Part shown: positions 20,603 through 30,135 of the stretch, in pieces
Numbering within the stretch: position 1 is the stretch's first letter
Layout: each line of letters begins with the position of its first letter
NCBI RefSeq assembly: GCF_003240565.2
Contig: NZ_CP117260.1
Location: forward strand, 186,001 to 250,000
Source: Rhizobium tumorigenes
GTDB lineage: Bacteria; Pseudomonadota; Alphaproteobacteria; Rhizobiales; Rhizobiaceae
Length of the DNA: 64,000 bases
Direction: 5' to 3'
Program-made: the position numbers and the translations under genes
Notes under the pieces: model-generated
Told to the model about the DNA's origin: nothing
What the model saw: only the letters and a program-made list of their open reading frames with translations
Database searches by the model: none

Positions 20603-22807
20603 ATGATTGAACGGCGAGCCGCGGGGCGCTACGGTTACAATATCCTGAGGGCGACTGTCTTGGCGCTGGCTGCCTGCGCCGCCTATCCGGCATTCGGCGA
20701 AGACGCTCAACCAACTGCAACGGCCGAGACCGATGTGTTGCCCAAGGAGAGCCGGATAAAGGGCGACACCGTGCTGAAGCCGATCGTCGTCGGTAAAGGC
20801 AGCAACGCCGCGACGCAGGGCTATCAACCGATCTCGACCGTAACCGCGACCCGCACGGATACACCTCTACTCGATATCCCGCAGGCCGTGAACGTTGTCA
20901 GCCAGGACGTCCTGAGGGACCAGAATGCCCGATCGCTGGACGATGCACTTGCAAATATCAGCGGTGTTGCGCAATCGAATACGCTCGGGGGCACGCAGGA
21001 AGCCGTCATCCGCCGCGGTTTCGGGGACAACAGGGACGGTTCGATCCTCATCGATGGCATGAAAACCGCGATGTCTCGCAGCTTCAATGCAACGACCGAT
21101 CGCGTCGAAGTGCTGAAAGGGCCGGCGTCGACACTTTACGGCATTCTTGATCCCGGCGGCATGATCAACATCGTGACGAAGAAGCCGGAACAGACTTTCA
21201 GCGGCAAGACCTATACCAGCGTTTCAAGCTTCGGCGGTGGCTCTGCCGGATTTGATTTCACGGGCCCGATCGAAGGCACCGATTTAAGCTATCGCGTTGT
21301 CGGCGACTACAAGCACGTCGACTACTGGCGCAATTTTGGCGTCAACAAGGATTGGGTGCTCTCACCGTCGCTCACGTGGTCCGGTGACGATACCGAAGTG
21401 ACCGTCTCCTACACGCATGAAGACTATAGTGTCCCCTTCGACCGCGGGACGATCTTTGATCTCGCCACCGGCCATGCCGTCAATGTCGACCCGAAGATCC
21501 GCTTCGACGAACCCTATAACATCAGCGACGGGCAATCGAACCTTGCGTCTGTCCACGTCAAGCGCGACCTTGCCGAAGACTGGAAGCTGACATTCGATTA
21601 CACCTACAGCATCAATACCTATTCTGATAACCAGGCCCGCGTAATCTCCTATAATGCAGCGACCGGGATCCTGACGCGGCGGGCGGATGCGACGCAGGGC
21701 TCGACGATCTACAATCACGCCGTTCGAACAGATCTGTCCGGTGACGTCGATATTGCCGGTTTCCGAAATGAGCTGCTGTTCGGGACGTCCTACGATTATG
21801 CGGATACGCTCCGGACCAAGTTGATCCGCTGCGCCAATCGCTCCGGGTTCAATATCAATAATCCGACCTACGGTACGCTACCGGAATGCACCACCGTATC
21901 GGCTGCCGACAGTGACCAGACAGAGCAGATCTCGACGGCTTCCATCTATGCCCAGGACGCGTTGCATCTCAGCGATCAATGGATCCTGGTCGGCGGTTTT
22001 CGGTATCAATATTATGATCTGATGGCCGGCAAAGGGCGTCCTTTCAACGAGAATACCGATAGCAACGGCACTTCTTTCGTTCCACGGGGCGGCATTGTCT
22101 ACAAGATGACCCCGGACTTCTCGCTGTACGCGAACGCTGCCAAGACGTTCCGTCCGCAGTCTTCCATCGCCAGTTATTACGGCAATCTCGACCCCGAAGA
22201 AGGCGTGGCCTATGAGGTCGGTGCCAAATTCGACGTGCTTGACGGCATCACCGCGAACGTCGCGCTGTACACTAGCGACAAGAAGAATGTCGCTTATTCC
22301 AGCCTCGATCCGGTGACGGGCGATACGGTGGTGAAGACGGCAGGCCTCGTGCGGGCAAGCGGCATCGAAGCCGATCTGGCGGGCGAAATCACCGATGAGA
22401 TGAGTTTCATTGCAAGCTACGGCTATACGCACGCGCGGATCCTCGAGGATCCCGACTACGCCGGAAACGAGCCGGTCAATGTACCGCATCATACGGGCTC
22501 GCTCTATCTCACCTATGATTTTGGTGAGATCGACAGTCGTGGTGATTCACTGAAGCTTGGAGGCGGTGTTCGCGCCGTCGGGCGGCGTCCCGGGATCAAC
22601 ACGAACGCCTACTACCTGCCGGGCTATATGGTGGCTGACGCATTTGCAGCCTACACTTGGAAAAACGACCGCCCGTTGACGCTCCAGCTCAACCTCAAGA
22701 ATATATTCAACAAAACCTACTACACGTCATCGATCGGCACGACAGCGTTGGGAAACCAGATCGGCGAGCCTTTCAGCGCGGTATTGTCAGCGAGCATCCA
22801 GTTCTGA
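20603..22807 (+). CDS. TonB-dependent ferric-siderophore receptor
   Basis: A 734-residue outer-membrane receptor. Start chosen at ATG 20603, preceded by a G-rich GATATGGGGG; an in-frame GTG 21 bp upstream is less likely. Signal peptide cleaves near AFG|EDAQ. A plug domain follows (TDTPLLDIPQAVNVV, RRGFGDNRDGSILIDG, EVLKGPASTLYG), with PGGMINIVTKKP at its end, then a 22-strand-type barrel ending in ...SASIQF with the expected terminal aromatic. This is the siderophore-receptor subfamily (FhuA/FoxA/FpvA-like). The divergent ABC importer completes the uptake route. Confidence 0.92.
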   Translation: MIERRAAGRYGYNILRATVLALAACAAYPAFGEDAQPTATAETDVLPKESRIKGDTVLKPIVVGKGSNAATQGYQPISTVTATRTDTPLLDIPQAVNVVSQDVLRDQNARSLDDALANISGVAQSNTLGGTQEAVIRRGFGDNRDGSILIDGMKTAMSRSFNATTDRVEVLKGPASTLYGILDPGGMINIVTKKPEQTFSGKTYTSVSSFGGGSAGFDFTGPIEGTDLSYRVVGDYKHVDYWRNFGVNKDWVLSPSLTWSGDDTEVTVSYTHEDYSVPFDRGTIFDLATGHAVNVDPKIRFDEPYNISDGQSNLASVHVKRDLAEDWKLTFDYTYSINTYSDNQARVISYNAATGILTRRADATQGSTIYNHAVRTDLSGDVDIAGFRNELLFGTSYDYADTLRTKLIRCANRSGFNINNPTYGTLPECTTVSAADSDQTEQISTASIYAQDALHLSDQWILVGGFRYQYYDLMAGKGRPFNENTDSNGTSFVPRGGIVYKMTPDFSLYANAAKTFRPQSSIASYYGNLDPEEGVAYEVGAKFDVLDGITANVALYTSDKKNVAYSSLDPVTGDTVVKTAGLVRASGIEADLAGEITDEMSFIASYGYTHARILEDPDYAGNEPVNVPHHTGSLYLTYDFGEIDSRGDSLKLGGGVRAVGRRPGINTNAYYLPGYMVADAFAAYTWKNDRPLTLQLNLKNIFNKTYYTSSIGTTALGNQIGEPFSAVLSASIQF

Positions 22808-22893
22808 CAGGTAGCTGATAAAATCGCTTGTCGATGGGTGGCTTGACGGCAGGCTTCCGTGAAGTCTTTTCACCAGCCTCTTTGGCTCGTTTT

Positions 22894-22924
22894 CCGTAGT
22901 CCGCTTTCGTGAGGCGGACTACGG
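22894..22924 (+). terminator. Hairpin downstream of the receptor gene
   Basis: Perfect 11-bp stem CCGTAGTCCGC/GCGGACTACGG with a 9-base loop, 86 bp after the receptor stop. A T-run precedes it rather than follows it, so it may be a factor-assisted terminator or an mRNA 3'-end stabiliser. Confidence 0.4.
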
Positions 22925-23049
22925 CCGCTCCTATCCTTTGTCCGCAGCGTTGGCATCTCTGTCGGAAAACACACCCACCGTCCGGATCTCCCGTCGCCTA
23001 TCTCGCAGCTCCTCAATCCATGAGGAATCCCTGCAGATACATCTGGGCC

Positions 23050-23120
23050 AGAGCCTTTGGCCGCCCCCCCTTCAAACCCGAAATCATCCTGATTGTGGCG
23101 GCAAGGTGGGCCGCCGCAAC
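23050..23120 (+). pseudogene. Possible relic of an IS6-family transposase N-terminus
   Basis: In one plus-strand frame the DNA reads FGRPPFKPEIILIVAARW followed by AAATSL. This resembles the start of IS6-type transposases (F-x-P-E-I-I-L-x-A-V-R-W-Y-L-x-x-S-L). The similarity stops after about 25 residues and no terminal repeats were identified. It would be a mobile-element scar next to the peptide-export genes. The match is short. Confidence 0.3.
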
Positions 23121-23181
23121 ATCTCTCAATATAACTAGACCCAACTCAATAATGAGCCATGCCATACCTTTGGACACGGCA

Positions 23182-23223
23182 GCTTGATTGCCACGCAGGA
23201 ATTGCGAGTGCAGGCAATCAAGC
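23182..23223. repeat. Perfect 11-bp inverted repeat upstream of the exporter operon
   Basis: GCTTGATTGCC (23182-23192) and GGCAATCAAGC (23213-23223) are exact reverse complements separated by 20 bases, about 220 bp before the exporter start. It could be an operator, a hairpin ending transcription from the left, or the end of a lost mobile element. The rest of 22808-23442 shows only the receptor hairpin and the short transposase-like stretch. Confidence 0.5.
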
Positions 23224-23442
23224 GCCGACAACGATCCAAGGGAGCTTTGACGTATGTTCTTACATCACTCATCTGCACGGAATTCGGGACCAGTCAGTAC
23301 CCTTGGTCTGATGCGAGTTCTGAACTGGATGTAAAAGTCCAAATCTCCCGAACTTAACCATCGTGTGCAGAAAAACTCGTCGACGGCCCTGTCGTGAGCG
23401 GACGGTCGTCGGCCGGAATAACGGCCGGGCTTTCGTCGAAAA

Positions 23443-25623
23443 TTGCATCCCATTTCTCATTTTTCACCACCGCTAAAGCGAGATCGTCAGTTGTTTCTCA
23501 CGGCCCTCCATAAACGCTACGGGATTGAGCCTCTGCTACAATCCGAAGCCGCTGAATGCGGGCTTGCGTGCCTGGTGATGGTGGCCGGCTTTCACGGTCA
23601 TCGGATAACCTTGTCAGAACTTCGCCGCCGCCACGCTGCATCCGCAAACGGTACGACCCTGAAAACGCTCATCGCCGTCGCTGACGATCTCGGTTTGACG
23701 AGTCGGCCGCTGAAGCTGGAAATGGCAGATATCGGCAAGCTGAAGACACCCTGCATTCTCCACTGGGATATGTCGCACTACGTCGTGCTGACGCATGCAT
23801 CCGGCCGGTGGGTGGACATCCACGATCCCGCGAGCGGCCAGCGGCGGCTTTCCCTCAACGAAGCATCGAAACATTTTACCGGGATAGCGCTGGAACTCAC
23901 GCCGGCAACCACCTTCCGAACACGCAAGGTGGTCGAGCGGGTGCGCCTGGCCGACCTGTGGTCCCGGAGCGCAGGCTTCATTCCGAGCCTGCTGCAGATC
24001 CTGGCGCTCTCCACCCTGTTGCAATTCTTTGTTCTGCTGTCGCCGCTGGTCAACCAGATGATTGTCGACGAGGCCATCTCAAAAGGTGATTTCAGTCTCT
24101 TGAACGTCATAGTCATCGGCGCGGGATTGCTGCTGCTGGTCCAGAGCGCCACGACCTTGTTGCGCGGGTACGTGCAGATGCACTTCAGCACGCTTCTCAC
24201 CTTTCAGATGCGCGGCAATCTGTTGCGCCATGCCTTGCGCCTTCCTGTCCCGTGGTTTGAAAAACGTCGTCTCGGCGATATCCTGTCGCGTTTCAACTCC
24301 CTTCAACCGGTTCAGGATCTGCTGACAGGTGGCTTTGTGTCAGGCGCGCTGGACGGTTTGATGGCGATCATCACGCTGGCTGTGATGTTGATCTACGCGC
24401 CCTATCTGGCAGGCATTGTGCTGGCCTCGCTGGCGCTGGTCATTTGCATCCGCTTGGGGACTTTCCCTTGGCTTCGCAGCCTGACCAACGAGGGCATCCA
24501 GCACCAGGCCAAGGTGGATGGTATCCTCCTCGAAACTATCCGTGGAGCGCGAGCATTCAAGCTGTTCGGACGTGAACTGGAACGCCACGGTGTCTGGCAA
24601 AATGCCTATGCCGACAGCATCAACAACAATGTACGCGTCCAGAAAATCAGTCTCAAAGGCTCGGCAGGCCTATCCTTCCTGACGGGTGCCGAGATGCTTC
24701 TGGTCTTCTATTTCGGCGCCGGCAGCATCATCAGGGGAGAGATGACGCTCGGCATGCTGCTGGCTTTCCTTTCCTATCGGAGCCAGTTCAGCACGGCAGC
24801 GTTTTCACTCGTCGATCAGTATTTCAAATTTCGCATGATCGGCCTTCATCTCGAGCGCCTGGCCGATGTGGTGCATCAGGATCCCGAGCCCGCCCTCAAT
24901 GCCGCAGCACGCGAGGATCGTCCCCTTGCCGGATCGCTCCTCGTGCGCAACCTCTCCTTTCGCTATGCCGAACGTGAGGCATGGGTTCTGAAGGATGTAT
25001 CCCTCTCCATAGAGGCGGGGCAGTCCGTCGTCTTTGTTGGCCCTTCCGGCGGCGGCAAGTCTACCCTCTTGAAATTGTTGATGGGCCTCTATCCGCCGGG
25101 CGAAGGCGAGGTGCTTGTCGACGGTCTCCCGCTCGGGGCGTTCGGGATGCGCGCCTATCGAGCCAAGGTTGGTGTGGTGATGCAGGACGACCAGCTTTTT
25201 GCGGGGACGATTGCCGACAACATCGCCTTTTTCGATCCTGAGATCGATATGGCGCGGGTCGAAGAAGTAGTCCGCCTCGTTGGCCTTCATGACGAAATCA
25301 TGCGTATGCCAATGGGCTACATGACCCTGGTTGGCGATCTTGGATCGACGCTGTCGGGTGGGCAGCAGCAGCGAGCTCTCCTCGCCCGTGCGCTTTACCG
25401 CAAGCCGTCCATATTGTTCCTCGACGAGGGGACGGCCAACCTGGATGTTCTGTCGGAGCGCCGCCTCATGCAATCGCTGAGCAAGCTCCGTATCACCCAA
25501 GTGATGGTCGCACATCGCGCCGGAGCCATCGAGGGAGCTGCCCGCGTCTTCGCAGTGGAGAACGGCAATATACGCGAGCTGAAGCGCGACGTGCCGGCAC
25601 AGCCGCTGCAGGTGGTGCCATGA
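23443..25623 (+). CDS. Peptidase-containing ABC exporter (C39 peptidase, bacteriocin/microcin type)
   Basis: A 726-residue three-domain exporter of the CvaB/MchF type that cleaves double-glycine leaders and exports the peptide. N-terminal C39 peptidase: Gln33 and Cys39 in QSEAAECGLACL, His112 in DMSHYVVL, Asp128 in IHDPASG. A membrane domain with about six segments follows (roughly 165-440), then an ATPase (about 485-720) with GPSGGGKST, LSGGQQQR, LFLDEGTANLD and VAHRAG. All catalytic residues are intact. The frame has no ATG before the active-site Cys; upstream of that the frame opens after TAA at 23419, so the start is probably the TTG at 23443. The adaptor gene overlaps by 4 bp and a leader peptide gene follows. 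Confidence 0.9.
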   Translation: MHPISHFSPPLKRDRQLFLTALHKRYGIEPLLQSEAAECGLACLVMVAGFHGHRITLSELRRRHAASANGTTLKTLIAVADDLGLTSRPLKLEMADIGKLKTPCILHWDMSHYVVLTHASGRWVDIHDPASGQRRLSLNEASKHFTGIALELTPATTFRTRKVVERVRLADLWSRSAGFIPSLLQILALSTLLQFFVLLSPLVNQMIVDEAISKGDFSLLNVIVIGAGLLLLVQSATTLLRGYVQMHFSTLLTFQMRGNLLRHALRLPVPWFEKRRLGDILSRFNSLQPVQDLLTGGFVSGALDGLMAIITLAVMLIYAPYLAGIVLASLALVICIRLGTFPWLRSLTNEGIQHQAKVDGILLETIRGARAFKLFGRELERHGVWQNAYADSINNNVRVQKISLKGSAGLSFLTGAEMLLVFYFGAGSIIRGEMTLGMLLAFLSYRSQFSTAAFSLVDQYFKFRMIGLHLERLADVVHQDPEPALNAAAREDRPLAGSLLVRNLSFRYAEREAWVLKDVSLSIEAGQSVVFVGPSGGGKSTLLKLLMGLYPPGEGEVLVDGLPLGAFGMRAYRAKVGVVMQDDQLFAGTIADNIAFFDPEIDMARVEEVVRLVGLHDEIMRMPMGYMTLVGDLGSTLSGGQQQRALLARALYRKPSILFLDEGTANLDVLSERRLMQSLSKLRITQVMVAHRAGAIEGAARVFAVENGNIRELKRDVPAQPLQVVP

Positions 25624-26855
25624 GTACCTTGTTCCGCACCGAAGCCACTGAACATCGCCGCCGTATTGGCGGGGAGGTGATGATCGCACAACCGGTGAGC
25701 CACGGGATGATGACGGCCGTCCTCGGCTGCCTCGTGGTGGTAGGTGCAGCCTATCTCATGACCGGCACCTATGCGCGCAAGGAGACGGTGCAGGGCTACA
25801 TCGCCCCGACTGGCGGCCTGGCGCAGATCTACGCCGCCAGGGGCGGTACGGTAACACGCGTGCTCGTCCATGAGGGAGACCTGGTCATCCAGGGACAGCC
25901 GATGGTGGAGCTGTCGCTGGAGATGACCGGCGCTGACGGCACGGTTGGTGAAAAATTGCGGATCGAGACGCAAGCCCGTATCCAGTCCATCGACACACAG
26001 ATCAAGGCATCCAACACCCGCTTCGACCAGGAGGAGCGGCGCCTGTCTTCCCGTGTCGAAGGACTGGGCAGCGAACTGGCGAGCCAGGAGCAACGTCTGG
26101 AGTCTGAACGCCGGCTGCAAGCCCTGCAGACAGACGATACCGGCCACTACGCCAAGCTCCAGGTCAATGGCGGCGGCACGCGTTTTGAACTATCGCGCCG
26201 CCAGCAGCAGATCTTTGCCCAGGAGAGCGTCATCCACGAACTCGAGCGGCAAAAGGAACAGCGGCAAGGCGATCTTGTCGATGCCCGCTCGCAATTGGCC
26301 AGCCTGCCGGCTGGAAGGGACGACAAGCTCGCTCAGCTACAAGGTCTTCGCAGCGAGCTTGAGCAATCCCTCGCCCAATTGCAGGTCAACCGCGCCTATG
26401 TGGTCGTCGCGCCGGTGGCCGGCCGGGTTGCGGCGCTGCAGGCCCAGCCCGGGCAGACTGCCATCGCCCAATCGCCTCTTGCCGCCCTCGTGCCTGGTGG
26501 CAGCAACCTCGAAGCCAATCTCCTCGTTCCGCCGCGCGCTGCTGGCCTTATCCAGCCAGGGCAGGAAGTACGGCTCAAGGTCGATGCCTTTCCATATCAG
26601 CGTTTCGGGATGCTTTTAGGACATGTCGTTCAGGTCTCCCGCGCAACCTATCGCGAGGGTGAGCTTCTGGCTCCCATCGCCCTCACAGCTCCCGTCTACC
26701 GGGTCACAGTCAGCCTCGAGCGTACCAGCATCGCCGCGTATGGCGAAGAGCGTCCGCTGACCCCCGGTATGACCCTAATCGGCGATATCGTCACAGATCG
26801 CCGACACTTCACCGACTGGATATTGGACCCTCTGATGGCCATAGGCAGCCGGTGA
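25620..26855 (+). CDS. HlyD-family periplasmic adaptor of the peptide exporter (CvaA/MchE-like)
   Basis: A 411-residue membrane-fusion protein. One N-terminal membrane segment (about residues 28-50, MMTAVLGCLVVVGAAYLM) is followed by a biotinyl-lipoyl-like half (ARGGTVTRVLVHEGDLVIQG), a long Gln/Glu/Arg-rich coiled coil (about 110-255) and the second half (VVVAPVAGRVAALQAQPGQ). Family: bridges the inner-membrane exporter to a TolC-type channel, which is not encoded here. Its ATG overlaps the exporter stop by 4 bp, so the two are made together. Confidence 0.9.
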   Translation: MSTLFRTEATEHRRRIGGEVMIAQPVSHGMMTAVLGCLVVVGAAYLMTGTYARKETVQGYIAPTGGLAQIYAARGGTVTRVLVHEGDLVIQGQPMVELSLEMTGADGTVGEKLRIETQARIQSIDTQIKASNTRFDQEERRLSSRVEGLGSELASQEQRLESERRLQALQTDDTGHYAKLQVNGGGTRFELSRRQQQIFAQESVIHELERQKEQRQGDLVDARSQLASLPAGRDDKLAQLQGLRSELEQSLAQLQVNRAYVVVAPVAGRVAALQAQPGQTAIAQSPLAALVPGGSNLEANLLVPPRAAGLIQPGQEVRLKVDAFPYQRFGMLLGHVVQVSRATYREGELLAPIALTAPVYRVTVSLERTSIAAYGEERPLTPGMTLIGDIVTDRRHFTDWILDPLMAIGSR

Positions 26856-26916
26856 TGACTGAAGGAGGGGAAGGCCAGGCAGGCCACCCCCCAACCCAAC
26901 CTGAAAGGAGACTAAC

Positions 26917-27156
26917 ATGAACAACATCATCGAACTCGACATCGCCCAGCTGGATCTCGTGAGCGGCGGCGCCTCCACGGTCGCTTCCACGGTCACCATC
27001 GGTGCCGATGGTGCTGTCAGCGGCAGCTACACCTTCGGTTCGAAGTCAGGCACGTTTTCGGCATCGCTGCCGGCTGAAGTTGTACAGAAGGCTGGAACAT
27101 TCTCGTTCAGCAACGCGTCTGGCGGCTTCAACTTCAATAGCTCGTTTGCTAGCTAA
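26917..27156 (+). CDS. Double-glycine leader peptide precursor, putative microcin/bacteriocin
   Basis: A 79-residue precursor 61 bp after the adaptor gene, with a strong AAGGAG ribosome site. The first 18 residues are a classic double-glycine leader (hydrophobic L7, I9, L12 and V15 before SGG at 16-18), the signal cut by C39 exporters such as the one encoded upstream. The predicted mature peptide is 61 residues, starting ASTVASTV. It is rich in Ser (14), Ala (9), Gly (8) and Phe (7), has no Cys, Met, Trp, His or Arg, and carries two Lys, one Asp and one Glu. Two similar motifs occur (SGTFSAS, AGTFSFS). No known bacteriocin was recognised. No immunity gene lies nearby. A secreted signal or toxin are both possible. 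Confidence 0.75.
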   Translation: MNNIIELDIAQLDLVSGGASTVASTVTIGADGAVSGSYTFGSKSGTFSASLPAEVVQKAGTFSFSNASGGFNFNSSFAS

Positions 27157-27177
27157 ACGCCTCTGATCGCATGAATT

Positions 27178-27202
27178 CCGGCAGCCGGTTCCCGGCTGCC
27201 GG
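27178..27202. terminator. Strong hairpin between the peptide gene and the convergent regulator gene
   Basis: Perfect 11-bp stem CCGGCAGCCGG/CCGGCTGCCGG with loop TTC, 21 bp after the peptide stop and 60 bp before the end of the convergent gene. It could stop transcription from both sides. No T-run follows. Confidence 0.55.
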
Positions 27203-27261
27203 TCCATCCGGGCCTGATCGGCACTAACGCCTGGGCATTGAAGCGGCCAGCCTCTGGCTTT

Positions 27262-28968
27262 TTAGCGCCGACTTCCTGGGCCTGCACGGAGCTGCAGGTC
27301 TACCTGCCTTGCAGCGTCATCGAGTGCCGCTCTGTCAGATTTAAACCCCGACAGGGCGTTGTGGACCTCTTCGCCGAGAATTCGCTCTATCGCCGTATAC
27401 TGGGGGATATTCGGCCGTTGCCAGGTGTGCAGAAGGTTCTTTTTTGCCAGCTGATCGACGAACCTGACGATTGGCGAGCTTGCCGCTGCCTCCGGGTCGG
27501 CGCTGACCGAAAAACGCGGCGCAATGGGAAAGCCGTTCTTGACGTGAGCCTTCATCGCCTCGCGCGATGCCATCCAGGCGATGGCGTCGGCAGCGAGCTC
27601 CACCCGTTCTTCCGGCAGGTTGGTCGGAATGCAGAAAAGAAACCCGCCGATGGGTGACGCGCGGGTGCCGCCGGGTCCCGCGGGCTGGGGTAGATATTCG
27701 ACCCGTCTCTTGACCACGGAATGGACGTCGTATTCGAAACGCGCGGTGCGCATCGTCCAGAAATAGCCGAGACTGGCCTTGCCGGTCATGAATACGTCGA
27801 GTGTGCGGTCCCATGCCATGTTGAGGATGTCAGGAGGCGAGATCTCGATCAGGCGGCGCATGAAATCCAGAGCCGCCAAACCGGCATCGGAGGAAATCGT
27901 GCAGTGCAACTGTTCGAGATCGACGCCTTCCAGGGTAAAGCCGGCACGGGTTTTTCTCAGCGAGATTGTCGGCTGGCCGCAGGCGCCGAGGAAGAACATG
28001 AAGCTCGAGGCTATCGGCATGCCGCGTGCACCGTCCCACACCGCGCCGTACATGCCATGGTTCGGCGCGTGAAAATGCCGCCCGGCCGCGATGACGTCTT
28101 CGAAATTGCGCGGGAAGTCCAGGCCTGCATCGGCAAAGAGGTCCTTGCGCGCCGCCAGGATTTCGACGGTGCAGTAGCCGGGAACGCCGTAATCCTGCCC
28201 GTCCCATCTCGCCGTCGACCATATGGATGGGTGAAAATCGAGTGGATTGATGCCTGTCTTCTGGACCAGTGCGTCGATCGGACGAATGATGTCCTTTTCA
28301 ACGAACTCCCCGAGCCACGGCATGTTGATGGCGATCACATCGTATTCGGAGACCGTCTTCTTCCGGTTTTCGAGGGCCCTGTTGTACAGATCCGGAAGCG
28401 ACAGGAGATCGAAGCTTTTCCGGGATGCAAGGTTGTTGCGGAAATCGGCCCACATGTTGCGCATCGCCGAGAAATAATTGTCGTTGTTGAGCAGGAAGCG
28501 CAGCTCGATCTGGGATTCGGCACGTTTCTGCATCAGCCGCATCGGTGGAATGATGTGCGAGCCGAGCGGGGTACCGCCAAAATAATAGTCGTCTTCCTGC
28601 TCGCCGCTTCTGAGGCCCAACGTCTGCGCGAGCAGGGACTTGGTCTTGCCGGCATAGGCCTGGAAGGCCTTCAGCAAGCTTTCGCTCGGTTGCAGCGCAA
28701 AGCTCTTGCCCGTCGTTCCCTTGGCGACCTTGAGAATATATCCGCTGTCGACGAGCCGGTTTATCAGCCGCATGGACGTGGCATAGGGCAGGCCGGATTC
28801 CTGGCCCAGCGTCGAGATCGATACGGTCTGGGTGTGGATGTGGGACTTGATGAGATACATGACGATCCTCCAGACAGGATCTTCGTCAAAGCCGACGACG
28901 ACGTCCTGAAAAGGCCTGCGGGTCCTTTCCAGAAATTCGATCACGCGCAGCATTTCGTATTCGTTCAC
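27262..28968 (-). CDS. Winged-helix regulator fused to a sugar-type solute-binding-protein domain
   Basis: A 568-residue protein without signal peptide or membrane segment. Residues ~1-120 form a winged helix-turn-helix (TLGQESGLPYATSMRLINRL, then GYILKVAKGTTGKSFALQPS). Residues ~140-560 resemble a full family 1 (MalE-like) solute-binding protein: YDVIAINMPWLGEFVEKD, GQDYGVPGY, FMTGKASLGYFW and SPIGGFLFCIPTN. This would be a one-component regulator that senses its ligand in the cytoplasm with a transport-type fold. It sits at the edge of the hydroxyquinol/sugar-transport island and probably controls it. Automatic annotation may wrongly call it a periplasmic binding protein. Confidence 0.75.
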   Translation of the reverse strand: MNEYEMLRVIEFLERTRRPFQDVVVGFDEDPVWRIVMYLIKSHIHTQTVSISTLGQESGLPYATSMRLINRLVDSGYILKVAKGTTGKSFALQPSESLLKAFQAYAGKTKSLLAQTLGLRSGEQEDDYYFGGTPLGSHIIPPMRLMQKRAESQIELRFLLNNDNYFSAMRNMWADFRNNLASRKSFDLLSLPDLYNRALENRKKTVSEYDVIAINMPWLGEFVEKDIIRPIDALVQKTGINPLDFHPSIWSTARWDGQDYGVPGYCTVEILAARKDLFADAGLDFPRNFEDVIAAGRHFHAPNHGMYGAVWDGARGMPIASSFMFFLGACGQPTISLRKTRAGFTLEGVDLEQLHCTISSDAGLAALDFMRRLIEISPPDILNMAWDRTLDVFMTGKASLGYFWTMRTARFEYDVHSVVKRRVEYLPQPAGPGGTRASPIGGFLFCIPTNLPEERVELAADAIAWMASREAMKAHVKNGFPIAPRFSVSADPEAAASSPIVRFVDQLAKKNLLHTWQRPNIPQYTAIERILGEEVHNALSGFKSDRAALDDAARQVDLQLRAGPGSRR

Positions 28969-29066
28969 GTCGGCCCTCCCGCCCGTCGCGTCATGACATA
29001 TGGTCGTAGCTCTACCTGATCCTTTTGGCTAGGATCGGTGCAGATAGGGACCAGAATGCCGGCGGG

Positions 29067-29969
29067 CTATTTTTCGGTAGGAGGGGCAAGTCCGGCGAGG
29101 CGTTCCGATTGCTCGAAGAGCACGAAGAAGTCCTTGTCGGCCTGGCCGCCGGCGTAGGCCGCCTCGTATTGCTGGCGGATCATCGATGCCAGATACATCG
29201 GAGTGTGGTCGGCCCGTGCCGCATCCAGGATGAGGTCGAAATCCTTCATCATCTGGGATACAGAGAATGCAGGATCGAAATTGCGGTTGACCAGCAGGTC
29301 CCGCTTGTAGGCGATCAGCGGTGAGGCCACGGCGCTCTCGCAAATCACCGACAGCATGGTCTCGACCGTGAGATTGCCCTTCAACCCGAGGGTAAGGGCC
29401 TCTCCCAGAAGCGCCGACGTTGCGCCGACGAGCGCATTGAGTACGAGTTTAAGGTAGCGCGCCTCCTCGGCCTGGCCGACATAAAAGCGGCGGGACGCAA
29501 AGCATTCGAACATCGGCTCCACGCGCTTGTAGGCCTCCTCAGGTCCCGACGCCATGACCGACAGGGTTCCGGACGATGCGGTCGCGGTGCTGCCGGAGAC
29601 TGGTGCGCGCAGGTATGAAACGCCAAGCGCCGACATTGCCTCGTTGACTTCCGTAGAAATTGCCGGCGACACCGTGCTCATTTCGACCAGGATCTGTCCG
29701 GTCTTCATCGTGGTGGCAAGGCCGCCCGGCGAGAAAACGAGCTCCCGCAGAACGGCGTCATTCGGGATTGTCAGAACGATGACGTCGGAAGCGGCTGCCA
29801 GATCTTCCAGCGAATGCGCCACATTGGCGCCCTCGGCAACGATGGTGGCGCGGTTCTCGGGCAAGGGCTCGTAGACGTGCAAGGCATAGCCGGCATCGAG
29901 AACGCGGCGGCTCATCGGGGCACCCATTTTGCCTATGCCTGCCCAGCCTACTGTAAATCTCTCGCTCAT
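29067..29969 (-). CDS. NAD(P)-dependent beta-hydroxyacid dehydrogenase (HIBADH family)
   Basis: A 300-residue enzyme. Start at ATG 29969 (MSERFTVGWAGIGKMG), preceded by GGGAGAGG; open sequence further upstream looks non-coding. Seen: the nucleotide-binding GWAGIGKMGAPM, the substrate-binding APVSGSTATASSGTL and the catalytic Lys region LKLVLNALVGA. Members oxidise 3-hydroxyisobutyrate, tartronate semialdehyde, 6-phosphogluconate-like or other 2/3-hydroxyacids. It lies 98 bp downstream of the start of the winged-helix regulator, on the same strand, and diverges from the dehydrogenase at 30560. Substrate unknown. Confidence 0.87.
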   Translation of the reverse strand: MSERFTVGWAGIGKMGAPMSRRVLDAGYALHVYEPLPENRATIVAEGANVAHSLEDLAAASDVIVLTIPNDAVLRELVFSPGGLATTMKTGQILVEMSTVSPAISTEVNEAMSALGVSYLRAPVSGSTATASSGTLSVMASGPEEAYKRVEPMFECFASRRFYVGQAEEARYLKLVLNALVGATSALLGEALTLGLKGNLTVETMLSVICESAVASPLIAYKRDLLVNRNFDPAFSVSQMMKDFDLILDAARADHTPMYLASMIRQQYEAAYAGGQADKDFFVLFEQSERLAGLAPPTEK

Positions 29970-30135
29970 CGACCTCTCCCTTGTTCCCGACGACCAGCAG
30001 CGCCGGTTTGCCGATCCCTTGCCTGCGGGGGGAACGTGCGTGTCGACCAATGCTCGGCATTCGGCCGCATAAACTGTCTCCGTCCTCCCGGAGAAATTAA
30101 TAGGACGAAGTCGGGATGGAATGCTTGGCAGAAAA

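What the first reader, a model, noticed from the sequence alone, without database searches (positions are those of the whole stretch)
23443..27156. Compact peptide-export locus with an unrecognised double-glycine precursor (microcin-like)
Exporter with an intact C39 peptidase (Cys39, His112, Asp128), an overlapping HlyD adaptor, and 61 bp later a 79-residue peptide with a textbook leader ending SGG at residues 16-18. The mature part (61 residues, Ser/Ala/Gly/Phe-rich, no Cys, near-neutral) matches no bacteriocin I know. The gene set is the minimum of a class II microcin system but in an alphaproteobacterial setting and in the order exporter-adaptor-peptide. It may be an antimicrobial or an inter-cell signal.
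Basis: partly seen in the sequence, partly recalled or inferred. Interest (0 to 1): 0.85.

Follow-up and report, generated by a model that had tools for sequence, protein, structure and literature searches.

The report
Mobile peptide-export cassette, beta-sheet cargo
Crown-gall bacteria and their relatives carry a small, apparently movable three-gene unit that looks built to trim and export a tiny beta-sheet protein; it resembles antibiotic-peptide systems but has no recognisable self-protection gene, so the cargo may be a surface or biofilm protein rather than a toxin.

Summary
The window carries a C39-peptidase ABC exporter (likelier start TTG 23491, 710 aa), an overlapping HlyD adaptor and, 61 bp on, a 79-aa double-glycine precursor. 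The precursor is a real gene: it follows the adaptor in 29 of 29 close loci checked, the same 13 plasmids hold both, and its core has dN/dS 0.10-0.17 (exporter 0.07-0.08). The conserved unit (about 23063-27221) ends in a covarying hairpin after the precursor; neighbours differ between loci, and no immunity-like ORF under coding constraint was found in it. The genome, by replicon sizes R. tumorigenes 1078T, has two copies and no other C39 protein. The core is no glycine zipper or membrane helix; it has beta periodicity, and AlphaFold2 gives a five-stranded meander (pLDDT 84, good in 2 of 5 models) without significant solved match. Public records call it "Blp family class II bacteriocin" or "flagellar hook protein". 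"Peptide-export locus" is well supported, "microcin" partly. I slightly favour an exported, self-associating surface/matrix protein over an immunity-less bacteriocin. No activity is shown.

The parts
23063..27221 (+). conserved cassette as a whole (limits where similarity to most relatives ends)
   Evidence: blastn of window 22000-30000 against 18 loci: 17 match only from 23029-23491 to 27149-27221 (two more, L007 and L010, counted among the 17, start at a locus edge near 25420); L037, strain 932's equivalent replicon, matches throughout
23118..23151 (+). conserved upstream element, putative promoter/regulatory site (AACATCTCTCAATATAACTAGACCCAACTCAATA)
   Evidence: clear in 8 of 11 aligned rows, altered in L002, not recognisable in L042 and L005; core pattern exact in 12 of 110 loci held; only 2 places in the genome, both upstream of a cassette. 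The minus strand of this block lies in a short ORF with a hydrophobic stretch, but its changes show no coding constraint. Function inferred
   Evidence: Pfam PF03412, PF00664, PF00005; relatives annotated at this start
23536..23910 (+). C39 peptidase domain; catalytic C23, H96, D112 and Q17 (710-aa numbering)
   Evidence: residues conserved in 16 of 16 copies besides the window
25620..26855 (+). HlyD-family periplasmic adaptor, 411 aa
   Evidence: Pfam PF13437 53.2 bits over cut-off 22.2
26905..26910 (+). ribosome-binding site AAGGAG of the precursor
   Evidence: GGAGACTA in front of the ATG in 29 of 29 loci
26917..27156 (+). 79-aa double-glycine precursor
26917..26970 (+). 18-residue leader ending SGG (L12 D13, V15, G17 G18 invariant in the 17 aligned family members)
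   Evidence: alignment A9
26971..27153 (+). 61-residue core; predicted five-stranded beta meander
   Evidence: dN/dS, periodicity, AlphaFold2
27178..27202 (+). 11-bp stem hairpin that closes the unit (terminator-like; U-run weak or absent)
   Evidence: stem of 10-11 pairs in 11 of 11 sequences, with C-G to T-A changes; the strict terminator scan did not list it

Best explanation
A self-contained, horizontally moving type I peptide-export cassette. The C39 domain binds the amphipathic leader and cuts after Gly18. The exporter, the HlyD adaptor and a TolC-type channel encoded elsewhere pass the 61-residue core out in one step. Outside, the core folds into a small beta-sheet protein with a mainly hydrophobic/aromatic face and a mainly Ser/Thr/Asn face. 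I think it most likely works by self-association at the cell surface or in the matrix (as EbfG proteins do in Synechococcus), rather than as an immunity-paired pore-forming bacteriocin. Likelihood by step: real gene 0.95; cut and exported by its neighbour 0.9; beta fold 0.75; surface/matrix role rather than toxin or signal about 0.43. Only gene conservation is shown; processing, export, fold and role are inferred.
For: Adjacency: 29 of 29 close loci (several the same record from two collections); 13 of 13 plasmids with an adaptor of at least 80% identity hold the precursor, and the 13 plasmids with the precursor are the same ones. Purifying selection on the core, dN/dS 0.10-0.17 against diverged relatives (adaptor 0.06-0.11, exporter 0.07-0.08). 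Only two C39 proteins in the genome at E 0.001, both from this cassette; three OEP (TolC-type) proteins over cut-off elsewhere. Unit closes with a hairpin after the precursor. No immunity-like ORF under coding constraint in it. Core: no GxxxGxxxG, highest 19-residue hydropathy 0.78; beta periodicity p about 0.01-0.02 and none at the helical angle; p<0.05 in 16 of 17 family members, window included, down to 43% identity (the members are related, so not independent tests); five strands at block pLDDT 85-94. Precedent for C39-exported GG proteins acting in biofilm matrix: EbfG1-4/PteB (passages of PMC4997328, PMC9981879).
Against: The GG peptides of Gram-negatives in the papers seen are mostly antimicrobial. 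More distant relatives of this adaptor sit beside other GG peptides, 7 of the 12 cores I tested with GxxxGxxxG, so cargo does turn over along this exporter line, as in microcins. The core's dN (0.09-0.17) is above the exporter's (0.07-0.08), and precursor identity to diverged loci (75-85%) is a little lower than the exporter's (86-88% where complete). A class of Bacteroides GG bacteriocins without immunity protein exists (passage of PMC10233263); an unlinked immunity gene was not sought. The fold rests on 2 of 5 models (84.3, 79.7; others 60.5, 57.5, 53.4), and a shallower alignment gave pLDDT 53. No sequence link to EbfG was tested; no adhesion or matrix genes lie in the unit. The 1078T replicon with the window is a putative chromid without conjugation genes, so recent mobility of this copy is not shown.
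Confidence: 0.43

Rival explanations
1. A bacteriocin (microcin-like) without a dedicated immunity protein: the exported core kills or inhibits related rhizobia/agrobacteria, and producers are protected by the exporter, by target insensitivity or by an unlinked gene.
For: Leader and exporter are those of class II microcins; weak PF10439 similarity in all 18 family members scanned, all below cut-off; patchy carriage, two copies in some hosts; distant adaptor relatives beside glycine-zipper peptides; GG bacteriocins without immunity protein exist in Bacteroides (passage). A minus-strand ORF with a membrane-type stretch (23231-23013, 72 aa, hydropathy 1.82) overlaps the conserved upstream element.
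Against: That ORF shows no coding constraint in its conserved part (pooled dN/dS about 0.8-0.9, third codon positions least variable), its length and C-terminus vary (37-97 aa from the shared ATG in 12 loci), and the block is not recognisable in L042 and L005. No other immunity-like ORF with constraint. Core not cationic, no membrane helix or glycine zipper.
Confidence: 0.4
2. A cell-to-cell signal: the exported core or a fragment is sensed by neighbours.
For: Conserved core, no immunity gene found; a response regulator and an ATP-binding protein (annotated so; sensor kinase is my guess) lie a few kb upstream in 2 of 10 annotated stretches, and the ATP-binding protein alone at the edge of a third.
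Against: No receptor or regulator gene is part of the unit; the pair is absent from the other annotated stretches; 61 folded residues is large for a peptide pheromone (my judgement).
Confidence: 0.11
3. The exporter's true substrate is another protein and the peptide is incidental or a decoy.
For: One PCAT and adaptor can export several microcins of a cluster (passage of PMC10233263).
Against: 29 of 29 adjacency with shared RBS context; core under purifying selection; in the 337 kb of own sequence scanned (replicon C6 plus 35 kb of C2) only the two copies of this peptide convince me among 21 leader-like ORFs. The chromosome and most of C2 were not scanned.
Confidence: 0.04

Closest known systems
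Class II microcins (MccV: CvaC/Cvi/CvaB/CvaA)
   Same: GG leader, C39 ABC exporter, HlyD-type adaptor, TolC-type channel elsewhere, core of about 60 residues, often on plasmids
   Different: no adjacent immunity gene found; order exporter-adaptor-precursor; core beta-patterned; no siderophore-attachment genes in the unit; no activity known
Cdz system of Caulobacter (CdzABCD-CdzI) and Cdz-like systems
   Same: alphaproteobacterial (Cdz itself), exporter and adaptor with small secreted proteins of 60-151 residues and a G[G/A/S] leader; surface retention and aggregation conceivable
   Different: no GxxxGxxxG zipper, one cargo protein, no CdzI-like protein found, precursor in the same operon
EbfG1-4/PteB of Synechococcus elongatus
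   Same: small GG-motif proteins cut and exported by a C39 transporter; matrix/amyloid role shown for EbfG (passages)
   Different: no sequence relation known (not tested); four cargo genes, another phylum; function here unproven
Pfam PF10439 Bacteriocin_IIc / 'Blp family class II bacteriocin'
   Same: leader and the first core residues match weakly in all 18 members scanned
   Different: none reaches the cut-off in the library used here (best 26.1 of 27.1 bits, P0004); the match ends at residue 28-48, in P0015 at 60
NCBIfam NF038167 CTB family bacteriocin (model name cyan_ocin_like)
   Same: spans leader and part of the core in the most distant homologues (P0013 25.3 bits, E 1.3e-5; P0017 21.7)
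   Different: below cut-off 32 in every member that matched; window peptide only E 0.38

Membership tests
C39 peptidase-containing ABC exporter (PCAT) with GG substrate | N-terminal C39 domain with catalytic Cys, His, Asp fused to ABC exporter | tested here: met
C39 peptidase-containing ABC exporter (PCAT) with GG substrate | cognate small precursor with GG leader (hydrophobic -12, -7, -4; GG at -2,-1; consensus recalled) | tested here: met
C39 peptidase-containing ABC exporter (PCAT) with GG substrate | cleavage after GG and export | not testable with these tools
   needs mass spectrometry
class II microcin | exporter, adaptor and GG precursor in one locus | tested here: met
class II microcin | adjacent self-immunity gene (small, TM) | tested here: not met
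   37 further ORFs of 40 aa or more overlap the unit; one, 23231-23013 (-), has a membrane-type stretch (1.82), but without coding constraint, with no fixed length, and its block is missing from L042 and L005. The small convergent ORF after the hairpin has a match only at tumorigenes-clade loci. An unlinked gene is not excluded
class II microcin | antibacterial activity | not testable with these tools
   -
class II microcin | highly variable core beside conserved exporter | tested here: inconclusive
   among close cassettes the core is constrained (dN/dS 0.10-0.17); beside distant exporters the cargo is different
Cdz-like system | glycine-zipper GxxxGxxxG in mature protein | tested here: not met
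   two isolated GxxxG, no GxxxGxxxG
Cdz-like system | contact-dependent killing | not testable with these tools
   -
EbfG-type matrix protein | GG protein exported by C39 transporter | tested here: inconclusive
   gene arrangement fits; export not shown
EbfG-type matrix protein | surface/matrix localisation, amyloid formation, biofilm phenotype | not testable with these tools
   -
EbfG-type matrix protein | sequence relation to EbfG | not tested
   EbfG sequences were not fetched; NF038167 did not ring in the Synechococcus elongatus control genome
PF10439 Bacteriocin_IIc | score over Pfam gathering cut-off 27.1 | tested here: not met
   window 17.8; homologues 14.2-26.1; a precomputed PF10439.16 label exists on P0004
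NF038167 CTB family bacteriocin | score over cut-off 32 | tested here: not met
   window 11.0; best homologue 25.3

The most novel reading that the evidence does not exclude
A new family of GG-exported, single-sheet beta mini-proteins carried by a moving three-gene cassette in crown-gall and other plant-associated rhizobia: microcin export machinery turned into a portable surface/matrix (public good) module, with no toxin and therefore no immunity gene.
Probability: 0.38. Interest if true: 0.75.

Novelty: new variant of a known kind. Interest (0 to 1): 0.5.

Why it matters
Genome pipelines label such peptides "bacteriocin" or "flagellar hook protein" on slight similarity. Here the gene evidence (no immunity gene found, constrained beta-patterned core, sharp unit borders) leaves it open that the cargo of a microcin-type exporter is not a toxin. 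The cassette sits in plant-pathogenic agrobacteria and relatives, on Ti, megaplasmid and chromid-like replicons, so it bears on how these bacteria compete or settle on plants. The question can be answered with two deletion strains and one purified 5.9-kDa protein.

Tried and rejected

Weak points told: the scan beside distant adaptors found leader-like ORFs in 15 of 26 loci against 2 of 27 control loci, but some of the 30 hits are fragments of the adaptor itself (L054, L070, L071), the only hit of L068 looks like a Sec signal and one of L074 like chance. Loci L048, L049, L067 (own and near) were left out of that test, and L006 was never scanned. On own DNA the same scan gives 21 hits in 337 kb, 19 of them not convincing. 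In the family-wide search 27 of 394 genomes matched at E 0.1, but I count only 2 (own and G247) as homologues; the rest lie at E 0.0016 or worse. The leader and C39 values rest on few sites. The alternation p-value uses strands predicted from the same sequence, so it is partly circular; searches are not. P0010-P0020 come without genomic context.
Full report
What is there. The window carries, on the + strand, a peptidase-containing ABC exporter, an HlyD adaptor overlapping it by 4 bp and a 79-aa precursor 61 bp later. Pfam finds Peptidase_C39, ABC_membrane and ABC_tran far above cut-off, and HlyD_3. The main DNA match to 6 of 8 diverged loci begins at 23468-23491, the sequence around TTG 23491 is conserved, and four diverged relatives (L040-L043) are annotated from it, while tumorigenes-clade records carry various starts. 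The C39 site (Q17, C23, H96, D112 in the 710-aa form) is intact in the window and in 16 of 16 other complete copies examined.

Where it lies. The genome's contig sizes (3,664,408; 834,411; 302,267) equal those given for the chromosome, pRt1078 and putative chromid 3 of Rhizobium tumorigenes 1078T (Table 2 of PMC10064268, passage). So the window is, by inference, on putative chromid 3. A second cassette with an identical precursor lies on contig C2, i.e. pRt1078. These two exporters are the only C39 proteins found in the genome. Three outer-membrane OEP proteins over cut-off, and one weak match, are encoded elsewhere.

The precursor is real. tblastn finds it on 13 plasmids, exactly the 13 of 34 adaptor-bearing plasmids (E 1e-40) whose adaptor is at least 80% identical. 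Among them are pTi plasmids of Rhizobium sp. L51/94, R. rhizogenes CA75/95 and A. larrymoorei. In species-level genomes it is rare: 7 of 148 in its own genus, own genome included, and 4 of 39 in the genus of G247 (Agrobacterium by matching coordinates, my inference). In 29 of 29 loci where both were sought (some the same record from two collections) the adaptor lies directly upstream on the same strand, 59-68 bp away, with GGAGACTA before the ATG. Against diverged copies the core gives dN/dS 0.10-0.17, the adaptor 0.06-0.11, the exporter 0.07-0.08. The core's dN (0.09-0.17) is somewhat above the exporter's (0.07-0.08). The leader is looser (dN/dS 0.3-0.7, few sites), and the C39 domain changes about twice as fast (dN 0.12-0.15) as the exporter as a whole, as if leader and peptidase drift together (inference).

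A unit with sharp ends. Of 18 loci compared, L037 (the equivalent replicon of strain 932) is alike throughout. The other 17 match only up to 27149-27221 at the right; at the left 15 of them begin at 23029-23491 and two at a locus edge. Annotated neighbours differ: siderophore uptake, RND pumps, MFS pumps, VirK/P450, response regulators and others (L044 has no annotation). Upstream lies a conserved element (23118-23151), clear in 8 of 11 aligned rows, that occurs in this genome only before the two cassettes. Just past the precursor comes a hairpin present in 11 of 11 sequences with C-G/T-A exchanges in the stem. Two copies are broken: L002 in the exporter frame, L047 in the adaptor frame.

Is there an immunity gene? 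Besides the three genes, 37 ORFs of 40 aa or more overlap the unit. One, 23231-23013 on the minus strand, has a membrane-type stretch (hydropathy 1.82) and runs through the conserved upstream element. From the ATG shared by 12 loci it runs for 37-97 aa with unlike C-termini. In its 16 conserved codons the pooled dN/dS is 0.82-0.86, and 7, 6 and 4 of 16 first, second and third positions vary, the reverse of coding constraint. The block is not recognisable in L042 and L005. I therefore read it as a DNA element, not an immunity gene. The ORFs that stay open in at least 5 of 6 diverged relatives all overlap the three genes and have no membrane-type stretch. A gene elsewhere in the genome is not excluded.

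What the cargo is like. The searches give a family of 20 proteins; in the 17 aligned, L12 D13, V15, G17 G18 and core residues A30, G32, Y38, G45 are invariant down to 43% identity. Of 18 members scanned with Pfam and 14 with NCBIfam none passes a cut-off. The window core has no GxxxGxxxG and no membrane-type stretch. Its hydropathy is periodic at the beta angle (p about 0.01-0.02) and not at the helical angle, and 16 of 17 family members, window included, have p<0.05. Of 4 cores beside distant exporters none is periodic at the beta angle and 3 are at the helical angle. AlphaFold2 with 21 sequences gives a helical leader and five strands (22-28, 33-40, 43-50, 60-67, 70-77) at mean pLDDT 84.3; the second model has 79.7, the other three 53-61; with 9 sequences the result was poor. 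One side of the strands is mainly V/I/Y/F, the other mainly S/T/N. A lone sheet with an exposed aromatic face should pair or stack with itself or a partner (inference). No solved structure matches significantly.

How it probably works. From established knowledge of PCATs: leader bound by C39, cut after GG, core passed through exporter, adaptor and TolC in one step. What the core then does is not shown. Against a textbook microcin speak the missing immunity gene and the polar beta pattern. Passages of PMC10233263 and PMC9746304 state that class II microcins have an adjacent immunity gene and highly variable cores; PMC5380434 (abstract, passages and sections 13 and 18) says that Cdz-like cargo varies more than its exporters. 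Here the core is constrained among close cassettes. But adaptors at 24-44% identity sit next to other GG peptides (leader-like ORFs in 15 of 26 loci against 2 of 27 controls; 7 of 12 cores tested with GxxxGxxxG), so at that distance the cargo does differ, as in microcins. A precedent for a non-toxic role exists: EbfG1-4, exported by the C39 transporter PteB, act in the biofilm matrix, some of them as amyloid (passages of PMC4997328 and PMC9981879). GG bacteriocins without immunity protein exist too (PMC10233263 passage). I put surface/matrix at about 0.43, bacteriocin at 0.40, signal at 0.11.

Print status. Judged from the listings, none of the papers returned (no paper) and 108 describes this cassette. 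In three papers on these genomes (PMC10410297, PMC10064268, PMC8554961; word finds only) the words bacteriocin and microcin do not occur. A 2004 genome screen for GG peptides (Dirix et al., seen only as a reference in PMC9746304) was not read, and the library lacks most subscription journals.

Noticed in passing
window 27265-28968 (-): 568-aa protein with a weak winged-helix (MarR-like, below cut-off) N-terminus and a solute-binding-protein domain in one chain: possibly a regulator/solute-binding fusion.
   Followed up: no
window 26917-27156 and homologues: Public records name the same peptide 'flagellar hook protein' in the tumorigenes clade and 'Blp family class II bacteriocin' in Agrobacterium, R. 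rhizogenes and R. lusitanum: a spreading misannotation.
   Followed up: yes
window 23231-23013 (-): Divergent short ORF with a membrane-type stretch over the conserved upstream element; shared ATG in 12 loci but no coding constraint and no fixed length.
   Followed up: yes
window 23536-23910: The C39 domain evolves about twice as fast (dN) as the exporter as a whole, and the leader faster than the core, suggesting leader-peptidase co-change between the two clades.
   Followed up: partly
L002, L047: Broken copies: R. rhizogenes 17-2069-2c exporter frame breaks near residue 91, Rhizobium sp. K1/93 first adaptor near residue 334; the K1/93, K15/93 and B21/90 plasmids each show two places for the peptide.
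   Followed up: partly
P0013, P0017: The most distant homologues score 25.3 and 21.7 bits (cut-off 32) with NF038167 (CTB family bacteriocin, cyan_ocin_like) over leader and part of the core: possible remote link to cyanobacterial GG peptides.
   Followed up: partly
L050, L059, L069, L071, L073, L074, L076: Distant alphaproteobacterial exporters have one to four GG peptides beside them, several with strong glycine zippers or proline repeats.
   Followed up: no
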